IMG/VR virus record: IMGVR_UViG_3300017527_000439
Span: 1 to 36,179 of that record
Reading direction: 5' to 3' (one strand)
DNA: 36,179 nt
Origin: a virus
Made by a program: the position numbers and the translations under genes. Below are positions 24,314 through 36,179 of this stretch, one piece after another (within the stretch, counting starts at the first letter, position 1; each line of letters starts with the position of its first letter). Below the pieces are notes generated by a model. That model saw only the letters and a program-made list of their open reading frames with translations. It ran no database searches and had not been told where the DNA came from.

Positions 24314-24382
24314 AGCGACCTCCTTGTTGGGGTTATGAGAAAGAGCGAGTGCAGCCGGTTTCCCGATCTGCTGTATATGCCT

Positions 24383-24411
24383 ATTATAACATACAATATT
24401 CGCTTTGTCAA
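24383..24411 (-). promoter_or_regulatory. consensus sigma-70 promoter for the small-gene operon
   Basis: On the minus strand TTGACA (24406-24411) and TATAAT (24383-24388) are separated by exactly 17 bases. Both hexamers are perfect. The expected start of transcription is near 24376, about 60 bases before the ATG at 24313. Such a strong promoter is typical of phage early genes. Confidence 0.88.
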
Positions 24412-24571: not shown

Positions 24572-25210
24572 TCAATGGTTAGCCTTTCGGTGATCAGCCC
24601 ACACCATTTGAATTAAGCGATGTTCTTGTTTTTCTTTTGCTGCGTCCATGGCTGCGTCCCTGGCCGCGTCCCAGGCTGCGGCACTGGCTGCGTCCTTGGC
24701 TGCGGCCCAGGGTGCGGTCCAGGCTGTGTCCCTGGCTGCTTCCCAGGCTGCGGCCCTGGCTGCTTCCCAGGCTGCGTCCCTGGCTGCGGCCCAGGCTGCG
24801 TCCTTGGCTGCTTCCCAGGCTGCGTCCCTGGCTGCGGCCATTAAAGATTCATCTTGAGTTTTTAAATATCTTTTAACAACATCGGGAGCGTCCCATAAAT
24901 GAATTACATCAAGAGCACACATACATGCGAATTTACGTAATAGACGTTCACCGTCAAGCCACCACAGAACCTTTCTTCTCTCTGCTACGGTTTTATCGTC
25001 TTGGTGCAGCATTTCACCGGCAAGTTCGACACGACAAATAATAGAACCAGGGGCATATTTTAATGCGTCAGTAATTTTTTTAGACGCATGTAAGCCAGAC
25101 TCACACATAATTAAATCCCCCTTATGCACAAGCCATTGACTTTTACGCGCAAGGCGATTATCGTCATAACCGAGCCTTCTATTCTTTGCCATGAAATGCC
25201 ATGCTTTCAT
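24572..25210 (-). CDS. DUF7666-like protein with Ala/Trp repeat tail
   Basis: A 212-residue protein. Residues 1-~120 match a phage domain I know as DUF7666-like: MKAWHFMAKNRRLGYD..., WLVHKGDLIMCESGLHASKK, DALKYAPGSIICRVEL, FACMCALDVIHLWDAPDVVK. The function is unknown; related proteins are widespread in phages and their hosts. Residues ~124-195 are a run of eight-residue units of the type AARDAAWE, which would form a long Ala-rich helix with regularly spaced Trp. The start has GGAGGAGGG. It is the last gene of the first leftward unit before the strong internal promoter. Confidence 0.75.
   Translation of the reverse strand: MKAWHFMAKNRRLGYDDNRLARKSQWLVHKGDLIMCESGLHASKKITDALKYAPGSIICRVELAGEMLHQDDKTVAERRKVLWWLDGERLLRKFACMCALDVIHLWDAPDVVKRYLKTQDESLMAAARDAAWEAAKDAAWAAARDAAWEAARAAAWEAARDTAWTAPWAAAKDAASAAAWDAARDAAMDAAKEKQEHRLIQMVWADHRKANH
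24640..24840 (-). repeat. degenerate 24-bp tandem repeat coding Ala/Trp helix
   Basis: GC-rich units around GCCTGGGAAGCAGCC (minus strand) repeat about eight times, coding A-A-x-D-A-A-W-E type octets. Because of the period and bias, all + strand frames also stay open here; these are not genes. Confidence 0.85.
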
Positions 25211-30542: not shown

Positions 30543-30737
30543 ATGGAAAAATTAGAATTAGATATCCGAAAAATAAAACACCTTTTGGCGGCATACAACA
30601 AAAAACAAAAATGGATCGGTGAACAACTTGGCGTATCTGATCAGTTGGTATCATATTGGTTACGCAAAAAATCGTTGACCGGCGCAAGGCGTATAGCACC
30701 ACTCTTTAATCTATCACCCAAAGACCTGATTAAGTAA
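30543..30737 (+). CDS. small HTH repressor / Cro-like protein
   Basis: A 64-residue basic protein with a clear helix-turn-helix: WIGEQLGVSDQLVSYWLRKK, then S-L-T-G-A-R-R-I-A-P-L-F. The second helix (VSDQLVSYWLRK) is the recognition helix. There is no dimerisation/peptidase domain, so it is more like Cro or an antirepressor-type regulator than a full CI. It is the first gene rightward from the divergent region, seven bases after a promoter -10, and lacks a Shine-Dalgarno site. Confidence 0.75.
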   Translation: MEKLELDIRKIKHLLAAYNKKQKWIGEQLGVSDQLVSYWLRKKSLTGARRIAPLFNLSPKDLIK

Positions 30738-30789
30738 AATTAATTATTCAACTATGAATTGATGCTAAAAAAATACCCCGAGGTGTGAA

Positions 30790-31659
30790 ATGGCAAATTA
30801 TCGCCCAATCTGGACAAAGATATGGAAGGACCCGGATTTTGAAGAATACACGCCAGACGAAAAGCTGCTTTTTATTTATCTTTGCACAAATGAGATGACA
30901 ACCGACAGCGGTATTTATCCAATCACACCGAAGACAATTTCCAACGAAACTTGCCTGGATAAGCAAACGGTTGTCCAACGGTTGGCAAACGGTTGTATAA
31001 GGAATATTTTATACGATCAACAGTTGAAATATGTTTTTGTGGTGAATTTTCGTGAATATAACGCTGGCGGCCGGCCGGATCTTCTGGAAAAAGCAATCGC
31101 AAATGACTTCAAAAAGTCTAACACCACGTTTTTATGGAATAATTTCATTGAAAAATATCCACAGTATAAAAAAGCAATCCTAACGGTTGGCAAACCGTTG
31201 GCAAACGGTTGTAGCACGGTCGCTACTAATCCTAGTCCTAATCCTAGTCCTAATCCTAGAAAAGATAAACAACTTTCAGCCGGTAAAAAATCGGCTGTTT
31301 TTTTAAAATCAAAAACCAAACATTTCGAGAAAAAAATTCCCGCCTATCTTGACGATATAAAATCCGCTTGCGAAAAAATAGAAACCCTTCCTAAAAAAAA
31401 TGGCGCTAAATTCAATCCGTATCAATTCGTACAAAAATCTGTAAATGACAGTCTGCATCCTCAAGCTATTTTGGATATTTTAAAATCACTTTATAAAAAT
31501 TGGTCCGGGGTTAAAAAACCATGGCCGTATGTATCGAGCAGTGTCAAAAGCGTAAGCCAGAATTATAACGAGCAGGATCATATAGCGCAGTCGAAACAAT
31601 TCAAAGAAGTGATATCAACCGAAACAGTTCAAGCTATGTTTATGGGGAAAAGCATATGA
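30790..31659 (+). CDS. phage replication initiator protein candidate
   Basis: A 289-residue protein. The N-terminal ~110 residues (ANYRPIWTKIWKDPDFEEYT, DEKLLFIYLCTNEMTTDSGI, TPKTISNETCLDKQTVVQRL) are a winged-helix region like that of many phage replisome-organiser proteins. A low-complexity linker with NPSPNPSPNP follows, then a helical C-terminal domain (SVNDSLHPQAILDILKSLYK). Lambda O has the same plan: DNA-binding half, linker, helicase-loader half. Iteron-like repeats in its own gene strengthen the replication role. Ribosome site GAGGTG. No ATPase motif is seen. Confidence 0.68.
   Translation: MANYRPIWTKIWKDPDFEEYTPDEKLLFIYLCTNEMTTDSGIYPITPKTISNETCLDKQTVVQRLANGCIRNILYDQQLKYVFVVNFREYNAGGRPDLLEKAIANDFKKSNTTFLWNNFIEKYPQYKKAILTVGKPLANGCSTVATNPSPNPSPNPRKDKQLSAGKKSAVFLKSKTKHFEKKIPAYLDDIKSACEKIETLPKKNGAKFNPYQFVQKSVNDSLHPQAILDILKSLYKNWSGVKKPWPYVSSSVKSVSQNYNEQDHIAQSKQFKEVISTETVQAMFMGKSI
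30966..31259 (+). repeat. iteron clusters inside the replication gene (candidate origin)
   Basis: Three 11-bp repeats (core AACGGTTG) begin at 30966, 30977 and 30988; three more begin at 31182, 31193 (AACCGTT form) and 31204. Both clusters are phased at exactly 11 bases, one helical turn. They are followed by TAATCCTAGTCC repeats of 12 bp (31227, 31239, 31251) and then AT-rich DNA. Lambda and related phages have the origin iterons inside O; this looks equivalent. Confidence 0.7.
31277..31304 (+). terminator. terminator-like hairpin inside the replication gene
   Basis: CAGCCG (31277-31282) and CGGCTG (31292-31297) form a 6-bp stem with a nine-base loop, followed by seven T. It is in frame with the gene (S-A-G-K-K-S-A-V), so it may be a weak attenuator or an origin cruciform rather than a true end of transcription. 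Confidence 0.4.
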
Positions 31660-32015
31660 CACCCACACAACGCACTCTAAAACTCTTAAGAGATGACGGC
31701 TGGACGCTCGACATTGTGGAAAGGTCATTGCCGGGAAAAACTTTTCGTATACGCCGGGATTTTTTGAATTGCATTGACATTATTGCTGTCAGGCCAGGTG
31801 AAACAGCCGGTGTGCAATCCTGCGGTCAGGCATTCGCGGCGCACGACAGAAAAATCCTTGCAGAAGAAAAAGCGTTGAAATGGCTGAATGGTGGCAACAG
31901 GTTAATTCTGATTGGATGGCGCAAGCTTAAAGCCAAGCGTGGTGGCAGGGCAATGATTTGGAAACCAAGAATTAAAGAATATACAAGGGGGGATTTTTTA
32001 TGTGGTTTTTCATAA
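31656..32015 (+). CDS. small nuclease-superfamily-like protein
   Basis: A 119-residue basic protein starting at an ATGA overlap with the replication gene. The segment PGKTFRIRRDFLNCIDIIAV then AGVQSCG, followed by a helix and LNGGNRLILIGWRKLKAKRG, resembles a recurring phage protein I associate with Hjc/VRR-like PD-(D/E)XK folds (D35, D41, Q54 where E or Q and K usually sit). The missing lysine after V-Q makes activity doubtful; it may be a DNA-binding relic. Role in replication or repair is inferred from place. Confidence 0.58.
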   Translation: MTPTQRTLKLLRDDGWTLDIVERSLPGKTFRIRRDFLNCIDIIAVRPGETAGVQSCGQAFAAHDRKILAEEKALKWLNGGNRLILIGWRKLKAKRGGRAMIWKPRIKEYTRGDFLCGFS

Positions 32016-32155
32016 CAGCGTTTGTGTTTTTCTGGTTTGGCTTCTTAATGGCAGCCATGCTGTCGGCACAAAACCAAAATAACAAGTTTGATCCATGGAA
32101 CGACCAACACCCGGACAACATCGGTTATGGAGAAGAGCCTATGGACAAAAAATAA
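32000..32155 (+). CDS. 51-aa small membrane protein
   Basis: MWFFITAFVFFWFGFLMAAM is one hydrophobic helix; the rest is hydrophilic and Asn/Asp-rich (DPWNDQHPDNIGYGEE). The start overlaps the previous gene by 16 bases and has AAGGGGGG seven bases upstream. No known family. It may be a small membrane effector in the rightward operon. Confidence 0.55.
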   Translation: MWFFITAFVFFWFGFLMAAMLSAQNQNNKFDPWNDQHPDNIGYGEEPMDKK

Positions 32156-32195
32156 ACTCAGTCACTGTTGCGATAACAACATGGATCAAAAACTA

Positions 32196-32226
32196 ATCCC
32201 CGCCTTTTACCGGGTGTGGCGGGGAT
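32196..32226 (+). promoter_or_regulatory. hairpin before the spanin-like gene
   Basis: ATCCCCGCC (32196-32204) and GGCGGGGAT (32218-32226) form a perfect nine-base stem with a 13-base loop. No T-run follows, so it is not a classical terminator. It lies just ahead of the AAGGGGG site of the next gene and could control its translation or mark an mRNA end. Confidence 0.45.
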
Positions 32227-32244
32227 CACCCACAAGGGGGCAGC

Positions 32245-32535
32245 GTGAAAAAACTTATCGGAATTTTTACATTGATCACATTAATTGCCGGCAGCATCGC
32301 TGTTATCTGGCAGATTGATGCCAGGTATGCCACCGCTGAAGAGGTTGAGAAGTTGTGTGAGCGCCTGGACAACAAAATTGCACAGGACAAACTGGATTAT
32401 TTGGATCAACGCATTTGGAAAATCGAGGATCGATATCCGAAAGGCAAAATGCCAATTATGGTTCGAGATCAATACCGGGGGTTAAAAAAAGAAAGAGCCA
32501 AACTTGAACGACAAATGAAAAAGGAGAAACCATGA
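32245..32535 (+). CDS. inner-membrane coiled-coil protein, spanin-like candidate
   Basis: A 96-residue protein from GTG, with AAGGGGG upstream. Residues ~4-23 are one membrane helix (LIGIFTLITLIAGSIAVIW) and the rest is a charged coiled coil (EEVEKLCERLDNKIAQDKLD..., GLKKERAKLERQMKKEK). That topology is the same as inner-membrane spanins (Rz). The next gene encodes a lipoprotein, as expected for Rz1. The pair is far from the holin/endolysin cassette, so the lysis role is only a proposal. Confidence 0.5.
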   Translation: MKKLIGIFTLITLIAGSIAVIWQIDARYATAEEVEKLCERLDNKIAQDKLDYLDQRIWKIEDRYPKGKMPIMVRDQYRGLKKERAKLERQMKKEKP

Positions 32536-32906
32536 AAAACATTTTAATTCTTTTGTTGGCAATCGTGATTTGCGGCTGCGGAGCTATTCAGATTTCACCA
32601 GAAGCGGAAACCGTCCTGATAAAATCAGCAGCCAGGACGCTTGGGTATAAGACCGCGCAGGAATTTCCTGACGAAAAGGTCATGGCCATCGCCTTTATTG
32701 ACGTTTTAATAGCCTCAGAAGACGCCACAATCGACGCAATTTTGGATGAGGGGGTAAGGTACCTCATAAAAAGATATGCCAAGGAACCGCTTCTAAGGGC
32801 CAGCCTGATGGATTTAAAGGGTATGGTTAAGATCGAAACCGGGGAATATGACATCGGCAAGGTCAAAATAGCCGCTGCAGCGTTTCGAGAAGGGATGGAG
32901 TTATGA
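32532..32906 (+). CDS. predicted lipoprotein
   Basis: A 124-residue protein with a lipoprotein signal: KNILILLLAIVICGCG, lipobox I13-C14-G15-C16. The mature part is helical (ETVLIKSAARTLGYKTAQEF, DEGVRYLIKRYAKEPLL). It overlaps the upstream coiled-coil gene by ATGA, like Rz/Rz1-type pairs, but lacks the short Pro-rich form of classical Rz1. Outer membrane location is inferred from the signal. Confidence 0.62.
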   Translation: MKNILILLLAIVICGCGAIQISPEAETVLIKSAARTLGYKTAQEFPDEKVMAIAFIDVLIASEDATIDAILDEGVRYLIKRYAKEPLLRASLMDLKGMVKIETGEYDIGKVKIAAAAFREGMEL

Positions 32907-33067
32907 ACCGCTTCATCGCCATCCTGTTTCTCTGGCTTTGTATCCTGGCCATCATCGCTGGCATGGCTTTTGTCTGCAAAAAGGCCTTCGCTGTTAGCGG
33001 TGCGGGTGTTTACAGAATAACGAAACCGCCGGAGCCGGTGGTGATCAGGATTGTGCCGGATGAGTGA
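32903..33067 (+). CDS. 54-aa membrane protein
   Basis: MNRFIAILFLWLCILAIIAG continues as one hydrophobic helix; then K-P-P-E-P-V-V-I-R-I-V-P-D-E. It starts at an ATGA overlap with the lipoprotein gene. The short Pro-rich tail after a membrane anchor may project into the periplasm. Function unknown, but the coupling to the spanin-like pair suggests a common task. Confidence 0.55.
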   Translation: MNRFIAILFLWLCILAIIAGMAFVCKKAFAVSGAGVYRITKPPEPVVIRIVPDE

Positions 33068-33242
33068 ATTAGAATGGCATGAGTTGTTTTCGTACATGCG
33101 TAAATATAACCGCGATCTCGAGATCGAAATTGAACGTATGAGGCTTGAGAACGCAATCAACAAAGGAGAAGACAATGAAAAGAATTCCGATAGTACTGGC
33201 ACTGTTATTAATATCAACCGCGGCATGGACCGATACCCTTAA
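33060..33242 (+). CDS. 60-aa charged helical protein
   Basis: It overlaps the previous gene by eight bases. MSELEWHELFSYMRKYNRDL then EIEIERMRLENAI forms an acidic helix; the tail (TGTVININRGMDRYP) is read through the start of the next gene in another frame. The first 40 residues look like a real protein; the end may be incidental. Confidence 0.45.
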   Translation: MSELEWHELFSYMRKYNRDLEIEIERMRLENAINKGEDNEKNSDSTGTVININRGMDRYP

Positions 33243-33510
33243 GTGGAATGCATCACCAACAGCGGATGGATACAAGGTCTATTACAACGAATACAGCAAA
33301 ATCGTTGGCGATGTGACCGAGTGCGTCCTCGAAGAGATCGGAACTGTACCCGGCACCGAATACACGATCCACACTACAGCATACAACTCGGCCGGCGAAT
33401 CTGAGCCATCTAACAGCGTTACATGGACACGGCCGGTTTATACACCAACAGACAACCCGGCACCGACGGTAATTATTATTCCGGGGCCAGTTACGATAAA
33501 TGTGCAGTAA
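33175..33510 (+). CDS. secreted fibronectin type III protein
   Basis: A 111-residue protein. The ATG at 33175 has AAGGAG upstream and starts a signal peptide (MKRIPIVLALLLISTAAW); an earlier in-frame start is less likely. Residues ~22-87 are an FN3 domain (LKWNASPTADGYKVYYNEYS, YTIHTTAYNSAGESEPSNSV). A Pro/Thr tail follows. FN3 domains are common surface and carbohydrate-adhesion modules in phages; here export is predicted, so it may act in the envelope. It ends just before a minus-strand terminator. Confidence 0.66.
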   Translation: MKRIPIVLALLLISTAAWTDTLKWNASPTADGYKVYYNEYSKIVGDVTECVLEEIGTVPGTEYTIHTTAYNSAGESEPSNSVTWTRPVYTPTDNPAPTVIIIPGPVTINVQ

Positions 33511-33527
33511 AAAATATAAATATACAC

Positions 33528-33558
33528 AAAAAAACCTGGCCGGTTAATCCCGGTCAGG
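33528..33558 (-). terminator. Rho-independent terminator for minus-strand transcripts
   Basis: A nine-base stem (33535-33543 with 33550-33558, one G-U pair) and a six-base loop. On the minus strand seven T follow (33528-33534). On the plus strand the run of A precedes the stem, so it ends leftward transcription only. No leftward gene lies to its right within this window, which is odd; see findings. Confidence 0.72.
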
Positions 33559-33579
33559 TCACTCACCAAATAGAGAATA

Positions 33580-34695
33580 TTGCAAAAAAACACTACTCAA
33601 TTAAAACTCGATAGTATTGAAGAACCGCCCCTTACGCCAAAATCAAGGGTAGCGAAGGTCGGGTTCACCTCTATGGAATTAAGGGTGATAGAACTTAGAG
33701 AGCAATTCAAAACAACAGCCGAAATACAAAGGGCAGGATTACCATTCACCGCACCACAGATTAATTCAATTATTTATCGTAGATTTAAAGATGCCGACCC
33801 ATTACATTTATATATCATAAAAATGATAACTGATGGATTGGGGGGAAAGGAGATAGGCCGGCGTTTAAATTTAAGGCCTTCAACAATTACGAGGATTGCA
33901 AAAAAATACGACATTAGTTTGTGGGATAATTATTTAAAAAAAATAAATAAAAGATATAATCCTGTAGATAAAAAAGCAAGGGCAGAAGACCTTTATTGCT
34001 ATTTCTTACACGGGCTGTCGATTAAAAAAATAGCAGAGCAGACAGGGTATAATCCAACATCTGTATCGACGTGGTTAAATAGGTTTATACCAGAATATAA
34101 AAAATTCTCGGAGCATAGAAGGGCCACCTCTCGATATAAAAAAATTATGCATAATAGAAAATTGTTGTCTAAAAAATTTAAGTCAGAAAAAGCGTTTGCA
34201 AATTATTGTGCTACTGAGGTTTTGGGCGATGTTCACCATGAATTATCGGCAAAAGGTGAAAGTTATATGGAAATTGATCTTTTGGTGTATGGCGTCATCG
34301 AAACCTTAATAGAATTAAAGGTGTCTGCAAGAAAAGTAGATGAGGCGAGGGCAATTGGACAGGCTATTTTTACAAGAAGTGGGTATCCGCGCCCATGTAG
34401 ATCGGTCGTTTGTTTTGCTAGTGACCTAACTCTAACGGACTATATAAAAAAAGTGGCAAGGGAAAACGATATTGTGATTTGTAATGAAAAAGAATTAGCA
34501 GGTGTTGTTGGTATGGTTGCGGCCATAAAACCAACACAGGGTGTCAACCCAGAATATGAAGAGATTGAATGTTTTTTTTACGATTGCACAATTACGAGGC
34601 AAGAATGCTTAGATGTATCTGGTGATTTTGAGAACCATGATGCCTGTTTGAGTTGCGTCGTGGGGCAAAGAACGAAAGAATTACTTTTGAATTAA
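33580..34695 (+). CDS. triple-HTH protein with PD-(D/E)XK nuclease domain
   Basis: A 371-residue protein. Three helix-turn-helix segments can be read: residues ~33-68 (TTAEIQRAGLPFTAPQINSI), ~78-112 (GGKEIGRRLNLRPSTITRIA) and ~136-168 (SIKKIAEQTGYNPTSVSTWL). From ~205 comes a nuclease-like part: E221 or E213, D233 in MEIDLLVYGVIE, E245-L-K247, then Q261 in AIGQAIFTRSGYPRP. A final Cys cluster (C331, C336, C343, C356, C359) may bind zinc. The gene starts at TTG with only a weak site; an ATG at 33673 would lose 31 residues. Such a fusion suggests a site-specific nuclease or transposase-like DNA processor. I know no close named family. Confidence 0.65.
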   Translation: MQKNTTQLKLDSIEEPPLTPKSRVAKVGFTSMELRVIELREQFKTTAEIQRAGLPFTAPQINSIIYRRFKDADPLHLYIIKMITDGLGGKEIGRRLNLRPSTITRIAKKYDISLWDNYLKKINKRYNPVDKKARAEDLYCYFLHGLSIKKIAEQTGYNPTSVSTWLNRFIPEYKKFSEHRRATSRYKKIMHNRKLLSKKFKSEKAFANYCATEVLGDVHHELSAKGESYMEIDLLVYGVIETLIELKVSARKVDEARAIGQAIFTRSGYPRPCRSVVCFASDLTLTDYIKKVARENDIVICNEKELAGVVGMVAAIKPTQGVNPEYEEIECFFYDCTITRQECLDVSGDFENHDACLSCVVGQRTKELLLN

Positions 34696-34700
34696 CAACT

Positions 34701-34905
34701 CTCACCAAATTTTGACACTACGGAAAATTTTCACTCACCAAAATTCAATCCCCATGGAAACTTTCCGCTCACCAAAATTCAACTCTCACCAATTTTTCAC
34801 TCCCTGGAGATTTTGCCTGTCACCAAAATTTCATTCTCTGGGGAATTTTCGAACTTTCAAAATCCCATTTTCTGGCGAGATTTTTCTCTGGAGAAATTTA
34901 CCGGT
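34701..34905. repeat. degenerate ~34-bp noncoding repeat array
   Basis: Motif A (CTCACCAAAATTCAA and variants) begins at 34701, 34734, 34768, 34785 and near 34819; motif B (like CTCTGGGGAATTTTC) falls ~19 bases later at about 34720, 34753, 34804, 34838, 34872 and 34888. Together they make ~34-bp units with a half unit of 17 at 34768. Within units AAAATT and AATTTT can pair. One motif A copy lies also upstream of the nuclease gene (33562-33570). The spacing is not a multiple of three, so the array is not a protein repeat. Units are too variable for CRISPR. Confidence 0.72.
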
Positions 34906-35030
34906 CGTAAAAAAACCCAAAAACTCAAGATTTCAAAATGGATTTGAGAAGTAGTTTTTGAAAAAAAATACAACTGGTAAAACCACTTAAAAAACAACTA
35001 CCATTTTTTATACTTTGATATGCTACACCT

Positions 35031-35058
35031 ATTATATAGACAAAAAACGGGAAGTCAA
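35031..35058 (-). promoter_or_regulatory. strong leftward promoter facing the repeat array
   Basis: On the minus strand TTGACT (35053-35058), 16 bases, then TATAAT (35031-35036). A second TTGACA sits 14 bases upstream (35067-35072). Transcription would start near 35024 and run into the repeat array and then antisense to the nuclease gene. No leftward gene is present to explain it. Confidence 0.68.
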
Positions 35059-35097
35059 TACTTTTCTGTCAATATATCCTTTTATTTCAACTACTTA

Positions 35098-35113
35098 TTT
35101 ACGATAGCGTAAA
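35098..35113. promoter_or_regulatory. 16-bp palindromic operator, copy 1
   Basis: TTTACGATAGCGTAAA is an inverted repeat of TTTACG with a four-base centre. The identical 16-mer recurs exactly 200 bases downstream. It is followed by a TATAAA element at promoter spacing (16 bases from TTTACG) on the plus strand, so bound protein would overlap a promoter. Confidence 0.65.
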
Positions 35114-35297
35114 TCATGGTATAAAACAAATAAATAAAAACAGATAGTTATAAAAAAATACCGTCCCTAAAAAGGGATTGAGATATTTTTTTAACAACTA
35201 CCACCGGACACAAAAAAATCACTTCTAATAAAAACAACCACTTATAAAAAAACAGTGCTTTTTATGATCTTTTATTATATTTTTTTATTGCTTTTTA

Positions 35298-35313
35298 TTT
35301 ACGATAGCGTAAA
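35298..35313. promoter_or_regulatory. 16-bp palindromic operator, copy 2
   Basis: Identical to the palindrome at 35098, with a further identical flank (TTA before). A possible -10 (TAAATA) lies 17 bases after TTTACG. The small Cys-rich genes begin 50 bases downstream and are the likely target. Confidence 0.65.
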
Positions 35314-35365
35314 ATATAGTTAAATAATAATTGATAAAAGACCGACGGCCGAAAGGGGTTGAAAA

Positions 35366-35539
35366 ATGACAGAATATTATCAAAACAAAGACGGTAGTTT
35401 AGCACAGTGTGAAAACTGCGGAAAGTTTATAGCTACCAATGATGGCTATTACGCAAGATTGAACGATTCTGAATATTTTACAAGTATTTTTTGCAATGAA
35501 AATTGTTATCTTAAAAGGATTGAAAGGGGTAAAAAATGA
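35366..35539 (+). CDS. 57-aa zinc-finger-like protein
   Basis: MTEYYQNKDGSLAQCENCGK then ...S-I-F-C-N-E-N-C-Y-L-K-R: C15-x2-C18 and C43-x3-C47 fit a small treble-clef or MYM/FCS-like zinc finger. GGGG-TTGAAAA provides the ribosome site. It is joined to the next gene by ATGA. No function is known; nucleic-acid or protein binding is likely. Confidence 0.62.
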   Translation: MTEYYQNKDGSLAQCENCGKFIATNDGYYARLNDSEYFTSIFCNENCYLKRIERGKK

Positions 35540-35718
35540 ATTTTAAAAAAGATATTGAAAGAATATTAAAAGAACATGGAAAGAAAAAAGGCATAAACGA
35601 ATTAAAAAGGCACGCGCTGGTCAGTACGCGAAATAATCACTATTGTAATAGTTGTTTTTGCTGCGCTTGTGTCGACTATTTAAAACCTGAAAAAAATGAA
35701 AGGCAGGTGAAAAAATGA
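35536..35718 (+). CDS. 60-aa basic Cys-cluster protein
   Basis: It starts at ATGA with the preceding gene and ends at ATGA with the following one. The N-terminus is a basic helix (FKKDIERILKEHGKKKGINE); the middle has a dense cysteine knot HYCNSCFCCACVDYLK. This suggests a metal-binding element. I do not recognise the family. Confidence 0.6.
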   Translation: MNFKKDIERILKEHGKKKGINELKRHALVSTRNNHYCNSCFCCACVDYLKPEKNERQVKK

Positions 35719-36050
35719 AAACAGAAAAATTTTTCTATGATGCGGATAGGTATCAATTTGACTTTAATATCTGTAGTTACAAAAAAGGTTTTTTTCAATT
35801 AGACACCGGTCAAGATGCGGCATACTTTGGCCAGTGGGTTAACCCTGCCGCATTAAAGATTGTGTGTTACTGTGAAGGAGATGTATCAATAATTACCACT
35901 GAAAGTATACATGAATTTATTGAAGAGATTGAAAAAATTAAAATCTGGAATGAAGAGCAGGGGCATAAATTTTATGGAATTGATCCCGGTCTAAATGAAG
36001 AGAATGAAAAAAAAATGAAAAGTATAGGATTGGGTGAACATTTACATTAA
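35715..36050 (+). CDS. unknown 111-aa protein
   Basis: Acidic alpha/beta protein: FYDADRYQFDFNICSYKKGF, then ALKIVCYCEGDVSIITTESI and a helix (HEFIEEIEKIKIWNEEQGHK). GCAGGTG precedes the ATG. No family is recognised. It is the last of three coupled small genes downstream of the palindromes, and ends ahead of a strong hairpin. Confidence 0.6.
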   Translation: MKTEKFFYDADRYQFDFNICSYKKGFFQLDTGQDAAYFGQWVNPAALKIVCYCEGDVSIITTESIHEFIEEIEKIKIWNEEQGHKFYGIDPGLNEENEKKMKSIGLGEHLH

Positions 36051-36058
36051 AATAAAAT

Positions 36059-36092
36059 GGCCTTTCAAATGGCGGTAACCACTTGAAAGGCC
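36059..36092 (+). promoter_or_regulatory. 10-bp hairpin between genes
   Basis: GGCCTTTCAA (36059-36068) and TTGAAAGGCC (36083-36092) form a perfect stem with a 14-base loop. There is no T-run after it, so termination is uncertain; mRNA stability, processing or protein binding are alternatives. Confidence 0.5.
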
Positions 36093-36137
36093 TATCCCGA
36101 ATTTAACCCGCTTGGATAAAATAGGAGATAAAAAAAA

Positions 36138-36179
36138 ATGATATCAAATGAAATGCGATATGTAAAGGATATTGGTATG
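36138..36179 (+). CDS. start of a further gene (partial)
   Basis: An ATG with AGGAGA about nine bases upstream opens a frame (MISNEMRYVKDIGM) that runs off the right edge. Only 14 codons are visible, so no assignment is possible. Confidence 0.5.
   Translation, partial: MISNEMRYVKDIGM

What the first reader, a model, noticed from the sequence alone, without database searches (positions are those of the whole stretch)
33528..35072. Leftward promoter-terminator pair enclosing a repeat array and the antisense of a nuclease gene
A near-consensus promoter on the minus strand (TTGACT-16-TATAAT, 35031-35058) and a clear minus-strand terminator (33528-33558) frame a ~1.5-kb unit with no leftward gene. 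Transcripts would first copy the ~34-bp repeat array and then run fully antisense to the HTH-nuclease gene. This could be an antisense control RNA, a guide- or decoy-like repeat RNA, or a remnant. Nothing else in the window explains either signal.
Basis: partly seen in the sequence, partly recalled or inferred. Interest (0 to 1): 0.75.

Follow-up and report, generated by a model that had tools for sequence, protein, structure and literature searches.

The report
Leftward antisense promoter–terminator pair in phage
In an uncultured phage, a strong leftward promoter and a good leftward terminator enclose a repeat array and run against a predicted DNA-binding nuclease gene, which most likely gives an ordinary antisense or convergent-transcription control like lambda's pO/oop; no relative was found to show that it is conserved.

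Summary
The signals are real as sequence. The minus-strand promoter TTGACT-16-TATAAT (35058-35031) matches 11 of 12; about 0.06 such sites are expected in that intergenic stretch. The minus-strand terminator (33528-33559) is a -16.6 kcal/mol hairpin with a U7 tail, z = -3.4. No leftward gene lies between them. Three corrections. (1) The terminator is not unique: leftward terminators of -16 kcal/mol or better also lie at about 32197 and 36059. All three sit in gaps between rightward genes (3 found, 0.2 expected, none rightward), so the promoter-terminator pairing is not established. (2) The '34-bp' array is built on a degenerate 17-bp unit. Its RNA folds no better than shuffles (z = -0.6), Rfam finds nothing, and it looks more like an array of DNA sites than a guide or decoy RNA. 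One array 12-mer (TCACTCACCAAA) recurs just upstream of the nuclease gene, so array sequence flanks that gene on both sides. (3) The promoter is one arm of a divergent promoter region with two identical TTTACG-N4-CGTAAA operators, in the most AT-rich stretch of the window. Best explanation: convergent antisense transcription that damps the nuclease gene, analogous to lambda pO-oop-tO. No syntenic relative was found, so conservation remains untested. Interest is modest.

The parts
35031..35058 (-). Leftward sigma-70-type promoter TTGACT-16-TATAAT; predicted start near 35024; a second TATTGAC lies 14 bp upstream of the -35 box
34903..35024 (-). Predicted AT-rich leader of the leftward RNA; contains a weak A/U hairpin with a U7 tail (about 34956-34913) that might end a short RNA
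   Evidence: sequence; fold no better than shuffles, z -0.17
34696..34902 (.). Degenerate tandem array, 17-bp unit in alternating types (CTCACCAAAATTTCA / CTCCCTGGAGAATTTTC), giving a 34-bp period; abuts the nuclease stop codon
33580..34695 (+). Nuclease gene (P0001, 371 aa, TTG start): helix-turn-helix domains, then a PD-(D/E)XK-like motif (EIDLLVYG...IELKV) and a Cys cluster; fully antisense to the proposed leftward RNA
   Evidence: HTH by Pfam; the nuclease assignment is read from the motif only, no family matched
33559..33570 (+). Isolated copy of an array 12-mer, TCACTCACCAAA, between the terminator and the nuclease start
   Evidence: 12-nt exact match; 0.0012 of shuffled flanks; 0 of 955 other window pieces
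33528..33559 (-). Leftward intrinsic terminator: 10-bp stem with one A.C mismatch, U7 tail
35098..35113 (.). Operator-like palindrome TTTACGATAGCGTAAA overlapping the -35 of a likely rightward promoter (TTTACG-16-TATAAA), back-to-back with the leftward promoter
   Evidence: repeat D2
35298..35313 (.). Second identical operator in the next rightward promoter region, ahead of the genes from 35366
   Evidence: repeat D2
32197..32231 (-). Another leftward terminator (-19 to -20 kcal/mol) in a gap between rightward genes
36059..36092 (-). Another leftward terminator (-25 kcal/mol) in a gap between rightward genes

Best explanation
A leftward promoter in the divergent regulatory region at 35.02-35.36 kb transcribes leftward through the 17/34-bp DNA-site array and then convergent with, and antisense to, the HTH-nuclease gene. 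Transcription stops at a leftward terminator just before the nuclease start codon, so it does not invade the upstream rightward operon. The act of convergent transcription, and/or the antisense RNA, keeps nuclease expression low or timed. The array is most likely a set of protein-binding DNA sites (operator- or iteron-like), possibly bound by the HTH-nuclease itself. Shown: promoter and terminator signals, array, orientation, absence of a leftward gene. Inferred: that transcription occurs, that it reaches 33528, and that it regulates the nuclease.
For: Near-consensus promoter and strong terminator in the right order, with no leftward ORF. The nuclease gene lies wholly inside the unit. The terminator ends about 20 nt before the nuclease start. 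The array behaves as DNA sites rather than structured RNA. Array sequence flanks the nuclease gene on both sides. Two other minus-strand promoters of this quality (30433, 24411) lie ahead of leftward genes, so promoters of this kind are probably used by this phage. Lambda gives a precedent: the leftward pO near ori-lambda drives an antisense RNA and interferes with convergent pR transcription (PMC3985674).
Against: No transcript data and no syntenic relative, so no conservation test. Sites of this promoter quality also arise by chance at the scale of the window (4 seen, about 2 expected). Leftward terminators also occur at 32197 and 36059 without a leftward promoter of 11/12 or better to pair with, so the terminator may serve any leftward transcription. 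A weak A/U hairpin with U7 at about 34913 might end the RNA before the array.
Confidence: 0.4

Rival explanations
1. Unpaired ordinary signals. The promoter makes a short leader RNA or a weak transcript of no consequence, and the terminator is one of several that stop any leftward transcription entering the rightward operon.
For: Three leftward terminators, none rightward, in 30700-36179; terminator-like A/U hairpin at about 34913; 4 promoter-like sites of 11/12 or better in the window against about 2 expected.
Against: In the intergenic stretch itself such a promoter is unexpected (0.06), and it sits in an operator-rich divergent promoter region.
Confidence: 0.27
2. Remnant. A leftward promoter, array and terminator unit of roughly 370 nt (or a leftward gene) once stood alone, and the nuclease gene inserted into it as a mobile or homing-type cassette, leaving array sequence on both sides.
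For: 12-nt array copy between terminator and nuclease start, and CTCACCAAAT on both sides (33562, 34701); nuclease gene and region are AT-rich against the neighbouring upstream gene (GC3 0.32 against 0.51); HTH plus nuclease-like motif fits a mobile nuclease.
Against: No empty-site relative found; the AT-rich tract continues through the genes to the right, so the composition step is not cassette-specific; the copy may simply be a protein-binding site.
Confidence: 0.15
3. Replication-origin element. The 17-bp repeats are iterons beside the most AT-rich stretch of the window, and the leftward promoter modulates origin activity as lambda pO does.
For: Direct 17-bp repeats; lowest GC of the window at 34901-35350; DnaD-like helicase loader gene 3 kb upstream; lambda uses four 19-bp iterons near pO.
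Against: Repeats are degenerate; no initiator shown to bind; the cumulative GC-skew minimum lies near 31.5 kb, not at the array.
Confidence: 0.13
4. Repeat RNA effector: guide, decoy, or an antitoxin RNA of the type III toxin-antitoxin kind acting on the nuclease.
For: Repeat array of about 34 nt beside a predicted nuclease gene, downstream of a promoter.
Against: Array RNA folds no better than shuffles; repeats only about 65-77% alike; opposite strand and 3' side of the nuclease gene; no Rfam hit; no ToxN-type Pfam match.
Confidence: 0.05

Closest known systems
Bacteriophage lambda pO / oop RNA / tO
   Same: Leftward promoter in the replication region of a rightward operon, RNA antisense to a rightward gene, ended by a leftward terminator in that operon; direct repeats of 17-19 bp nearby (PMC3985674)
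   Different: Here the RNA would be about 1.5 kb (oop is a short transcript), it crosses the repeats, covers a nuclease gene rather than cII, and there is no sequence homology or expression evidence
Cis-antisense / transcriptional-interference units in phages and bacteria (P22 sar, lambda aQ; reviewed in PMC12197685)
   Same: Promoter on the antisense strand of a gene, non-coding RNA
   Different: Full-length overlap of a nuclease gene together with a tandem array
Type III toxin-antitoxin (ToxIN)
   Same: Repeat array of about 36 nt next to a nuclease gene (from general knowledge)
   Different: There the array is 5' of the toxin gene on the same strand with near-identical repeats; here it is 3', antisense and degenerate; no Rfam or Pfam match
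Phage or plasmid iteron arrays and operator arrays
   Same: Direct repeats of 17-22 bp next to an AT-rich stretch
   Different: Binding protein unknown; higher-order 34-bp alternation; degenerate copies

Membership tests
lambda oop-type antisense unit | leftward sigma-70 promoter inside a rightward early/replication operon | tested here: met
   (11/12 promoter between rightward genes; DnaD-like gene upstream); sequence signal only
lambda oop-type antisense unit | leftward intrinsic terminator ending the RNA antisense to a rightward gene | tested here: met
   (as a sequence signal only)
lambda oop-type antisense unit | short discrete RNA shown to be made and to act on the antisense gene | not testable with these tools
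   no transcript data
lambda oop-type antisense unit | homology or synteny with lambdoid immunity/replication region | tested here: not met
   no DNA match in 50,697 phage records
type III toxin-antitoxin | ToxN/AbiQ-type toxin | tested here: not met
   Pfam finds HTH families only
type III toxin-antitoxin | near-identical repeats on the toxin strand, upstream of the toxin gene | tested here: not met
   array lies 3' of the gene and is degenerate
CRISPR or guide-RNA array | identical repeats separated by unique spacers, or a structured repeat RNA | tested here: not met
   degenerate contiguous 17-bp units; RNA z-score -0.63
iteron replication origin | direct repeats of 17-22 bp next to an AT-rich unwinding stretch | tested here: met
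iteron replication origin | initiator protein binds the repeats | not testable with these tools
   needs binding assay
iteron replication origin | skew minimum at the origin | tested here: inconclusive
   cumulative GC-skew minimum near 31.5 kb, scanned from 20 kb; in a small phage genome skew mainly follows gene strand, so weak evidence

The most novel reading that the evidence does not exclude
The nuclease gene sits inside its own target array: the HTH-nuclease binds (and perhaps cuts) the 17-bp sites that flank it, and a leftward transcript through the array and the whole gene acts as its dedicated antisense control, a self-contained array-nuclease-antisense module not described before.
Probability: 0.07. 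Interest if true: 0.65.

Novelty: new member of a known kind. Interest (0 to 1): 0.3.

Why it matters
If transcribed, this is another case of a phage using a full-length convergent antisense unit to hold a nuclease gene in check, with a lambda pO-like layout in a phage far from lambda. The leftward terminators placed in the gaps of a rightward operon (3 seen, 0.2 expected) would be a simple, testable sign that this phage actively limits antisense transcription.

Tried and rejected
Relatives: P0001 by peptide patterns in viral and genome contigs and by tblastn in phages and plasmids: none. RecT-like and FN3 proteins in viral contigs: none. The DnaD-like protein gave one 51% relative (L002), whose downstream genes differ and which has neither array nor P0001 homologue; an alignment of the two found nothing further. 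The ORF at 35715 gave a relative in an unrelated phage (L003). Array motif pairs in viral contigs gave coding hexapeptide-type repeats and one other array (L117), with no P0001 homologue near any. Operator motif: 18 single hits, none in a relative. Structure: AlphaFold2 of P0001 alone was poor (pLDDT 43.5), so no fold search was made. Hypotheses rejected: known RNA family; type III toxin-antitoxin; CRISPR-like array; a hidden leftward gene; the array as a decayed coding repeat, because the 17-bp period breaks frame at each unit.

Full report
Source. The window is a whole virus record of 36,179 bp. It has no end repeats and no terminase was recognised among the ORFs scanned, so it is probably a fragment. 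Gene content is that of a tailed phage: head protease, major head protein, tape measure, a Rha-like regulator, RecT-like and exonuclease genes on the minus strand, and a DnaD-like helicase loader at 30790. No phage record matches at DNA level around the locus, and the best matches of the major head protein to known phages are only about 27-32% identical.

Promoter. TTGACT-16-TATAAT on the minus strand (35058-35031) is the best promoter-like site in 32.0-36.2 kb. In shuffles of the 670-nt intergenic region such a site appears 0.06 times; over the whole window there are four such sites against about two expected. Two of the other three (30433 and 24411, minus strand) lie ahead of leftward genes or ORFs, and one (14199) lies inside a rightward gene. 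The region between 35.02 and 35.36 kb holds two identical palindromes TTTACGATAGCGTAAA, each overlapping the -35 of a possible rightward promoter. The leftward promoter is thus one arm of a divergent promoter region, in the most AT-rich 400 bp of the window.

Terminator. The hairpin at 33534-33559 with U7 on the minus strand folds at -16.6 kcal/mol, z -3.41. One pair is A.C on the minus strand and G.U on the plus strand, which is why the pattern scan missed it. An energy-based scan of 30700-36179 finds three terminators of -16 kcal/mol or better, all leftward (about 32197, 33534, 36059), where shuffles give 0.2 on that strand and none of 80 reaches three. All three lie in gaps between rightward genes. 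The terminator is therefore real as a signal, but it is a member of a class and need not be the partner of this promoter.

Array. The repeat at 34696-34902 has autocorrelation peaks at 34, 51, 17 and 68 (0.52 at 34; the highest of 500 shuffles was 0.40), so the base unit is 17 bp in two alternating types. It starts directly after the nuclease stop codon. A 12-mer of the array (TCACTCACCAAA) recurs between the terminator and the nuclease start at 33559-33570; 0.12% of shuffled flanks and none of 955 other window pieces share a 12-mer with the array. By gapped local alignment the same copy is less striking (5.8% of shuffles). Transcribed leftward, the array folds no better than shuffles (z -0.63) and matches no Rfam family. 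This favours DNA sites over a functional repeat RNA.

Nuclease gene. P0001 has two HTH segments recognised by Pfam, followed by a stretch that reads as a PD-(D/E)XK motif and a cysteine cluster. The nuclease call rests on reading the motif; no family library, PDB search or structure model confirmed it.

Mechanism. The simplest reading is convergent antisense transcription over the nuclease gene, ended before its start codon. Lambda is the precedent: pO is a leftward promoter near ori-lambda whose RNA is antisense to cII and whose activity reduces convergent pR transcription (PMC3985674). The unit here works like that at most by analogy; it shares no homology, and no expression data exist. Rivals are unpaired ordinary signals, a remnant interrupted by the nuclease gene, and an iteron-type origin. 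A guide, decoy or type III antitoxin RNA is unlikely.

Conservation. Eight viral-contig scans, two genome-contig scans and ten record searches gave one phage related at the neighbouring DnaD-like gene (51%), with a different downstream region. The tools state that records very near the window's own may be left out, so close relatives may exist unseen.

Verdict. Observation confirmed, interpretation partly supported, probably an ordinary phage antisense or convergent control unit; interest 0.3.

Noticed in passing
window 32197-32231, 33528-33559, 36059-36092 (minus strand): Three strong leftward terminators, each in a gap between rightward genes and upstream of the next gene's start; 0.2 expected, none rightward.
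   Followed up: partly
window 35080-35139 and 35280-35339: Two 72%-identical 60-bp promoter regions 200 bp apart, each with the same palindrome TTTACGATAGCGTAAA; likely operators of an early regulator.
   Followed up: partly
L117:2356-3007 (IMGVR_UViG_3300005253_003381): 18-unit array with a 36-bp period: near-invariant TGGTGAGCG, 9-10 nt variable, semi-conserved TGTGTAACG, 9 nt variable; stops in all + frames; no Rfam or phage match. Non-coding, or a decayed hexapeptide-repeat gene; not shown to be related to the window array.
   Followed up: partly
window 24382-24411 (minus): A perfect 12/12 promoter (TTGACA-17-TATAAT) ahead of small minus-strand ORFs at 22.6-24.1 kb.
   Followed up: no
window 34980-35255: Several copies of CAACYACTTA / AACCACTTA-A-rich motifs on both sides of the divergent promoters, possibly sites of another regulator; they make the leftward leader partly complementary to the rightward leader.
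   Followed up: no
window 24639-24836: 12/36-bp tandem repeat (GCTGCGTCCCTG) over 200 bp, overlapping a minus-strand ORF (24572-25210).
   Followed up: no
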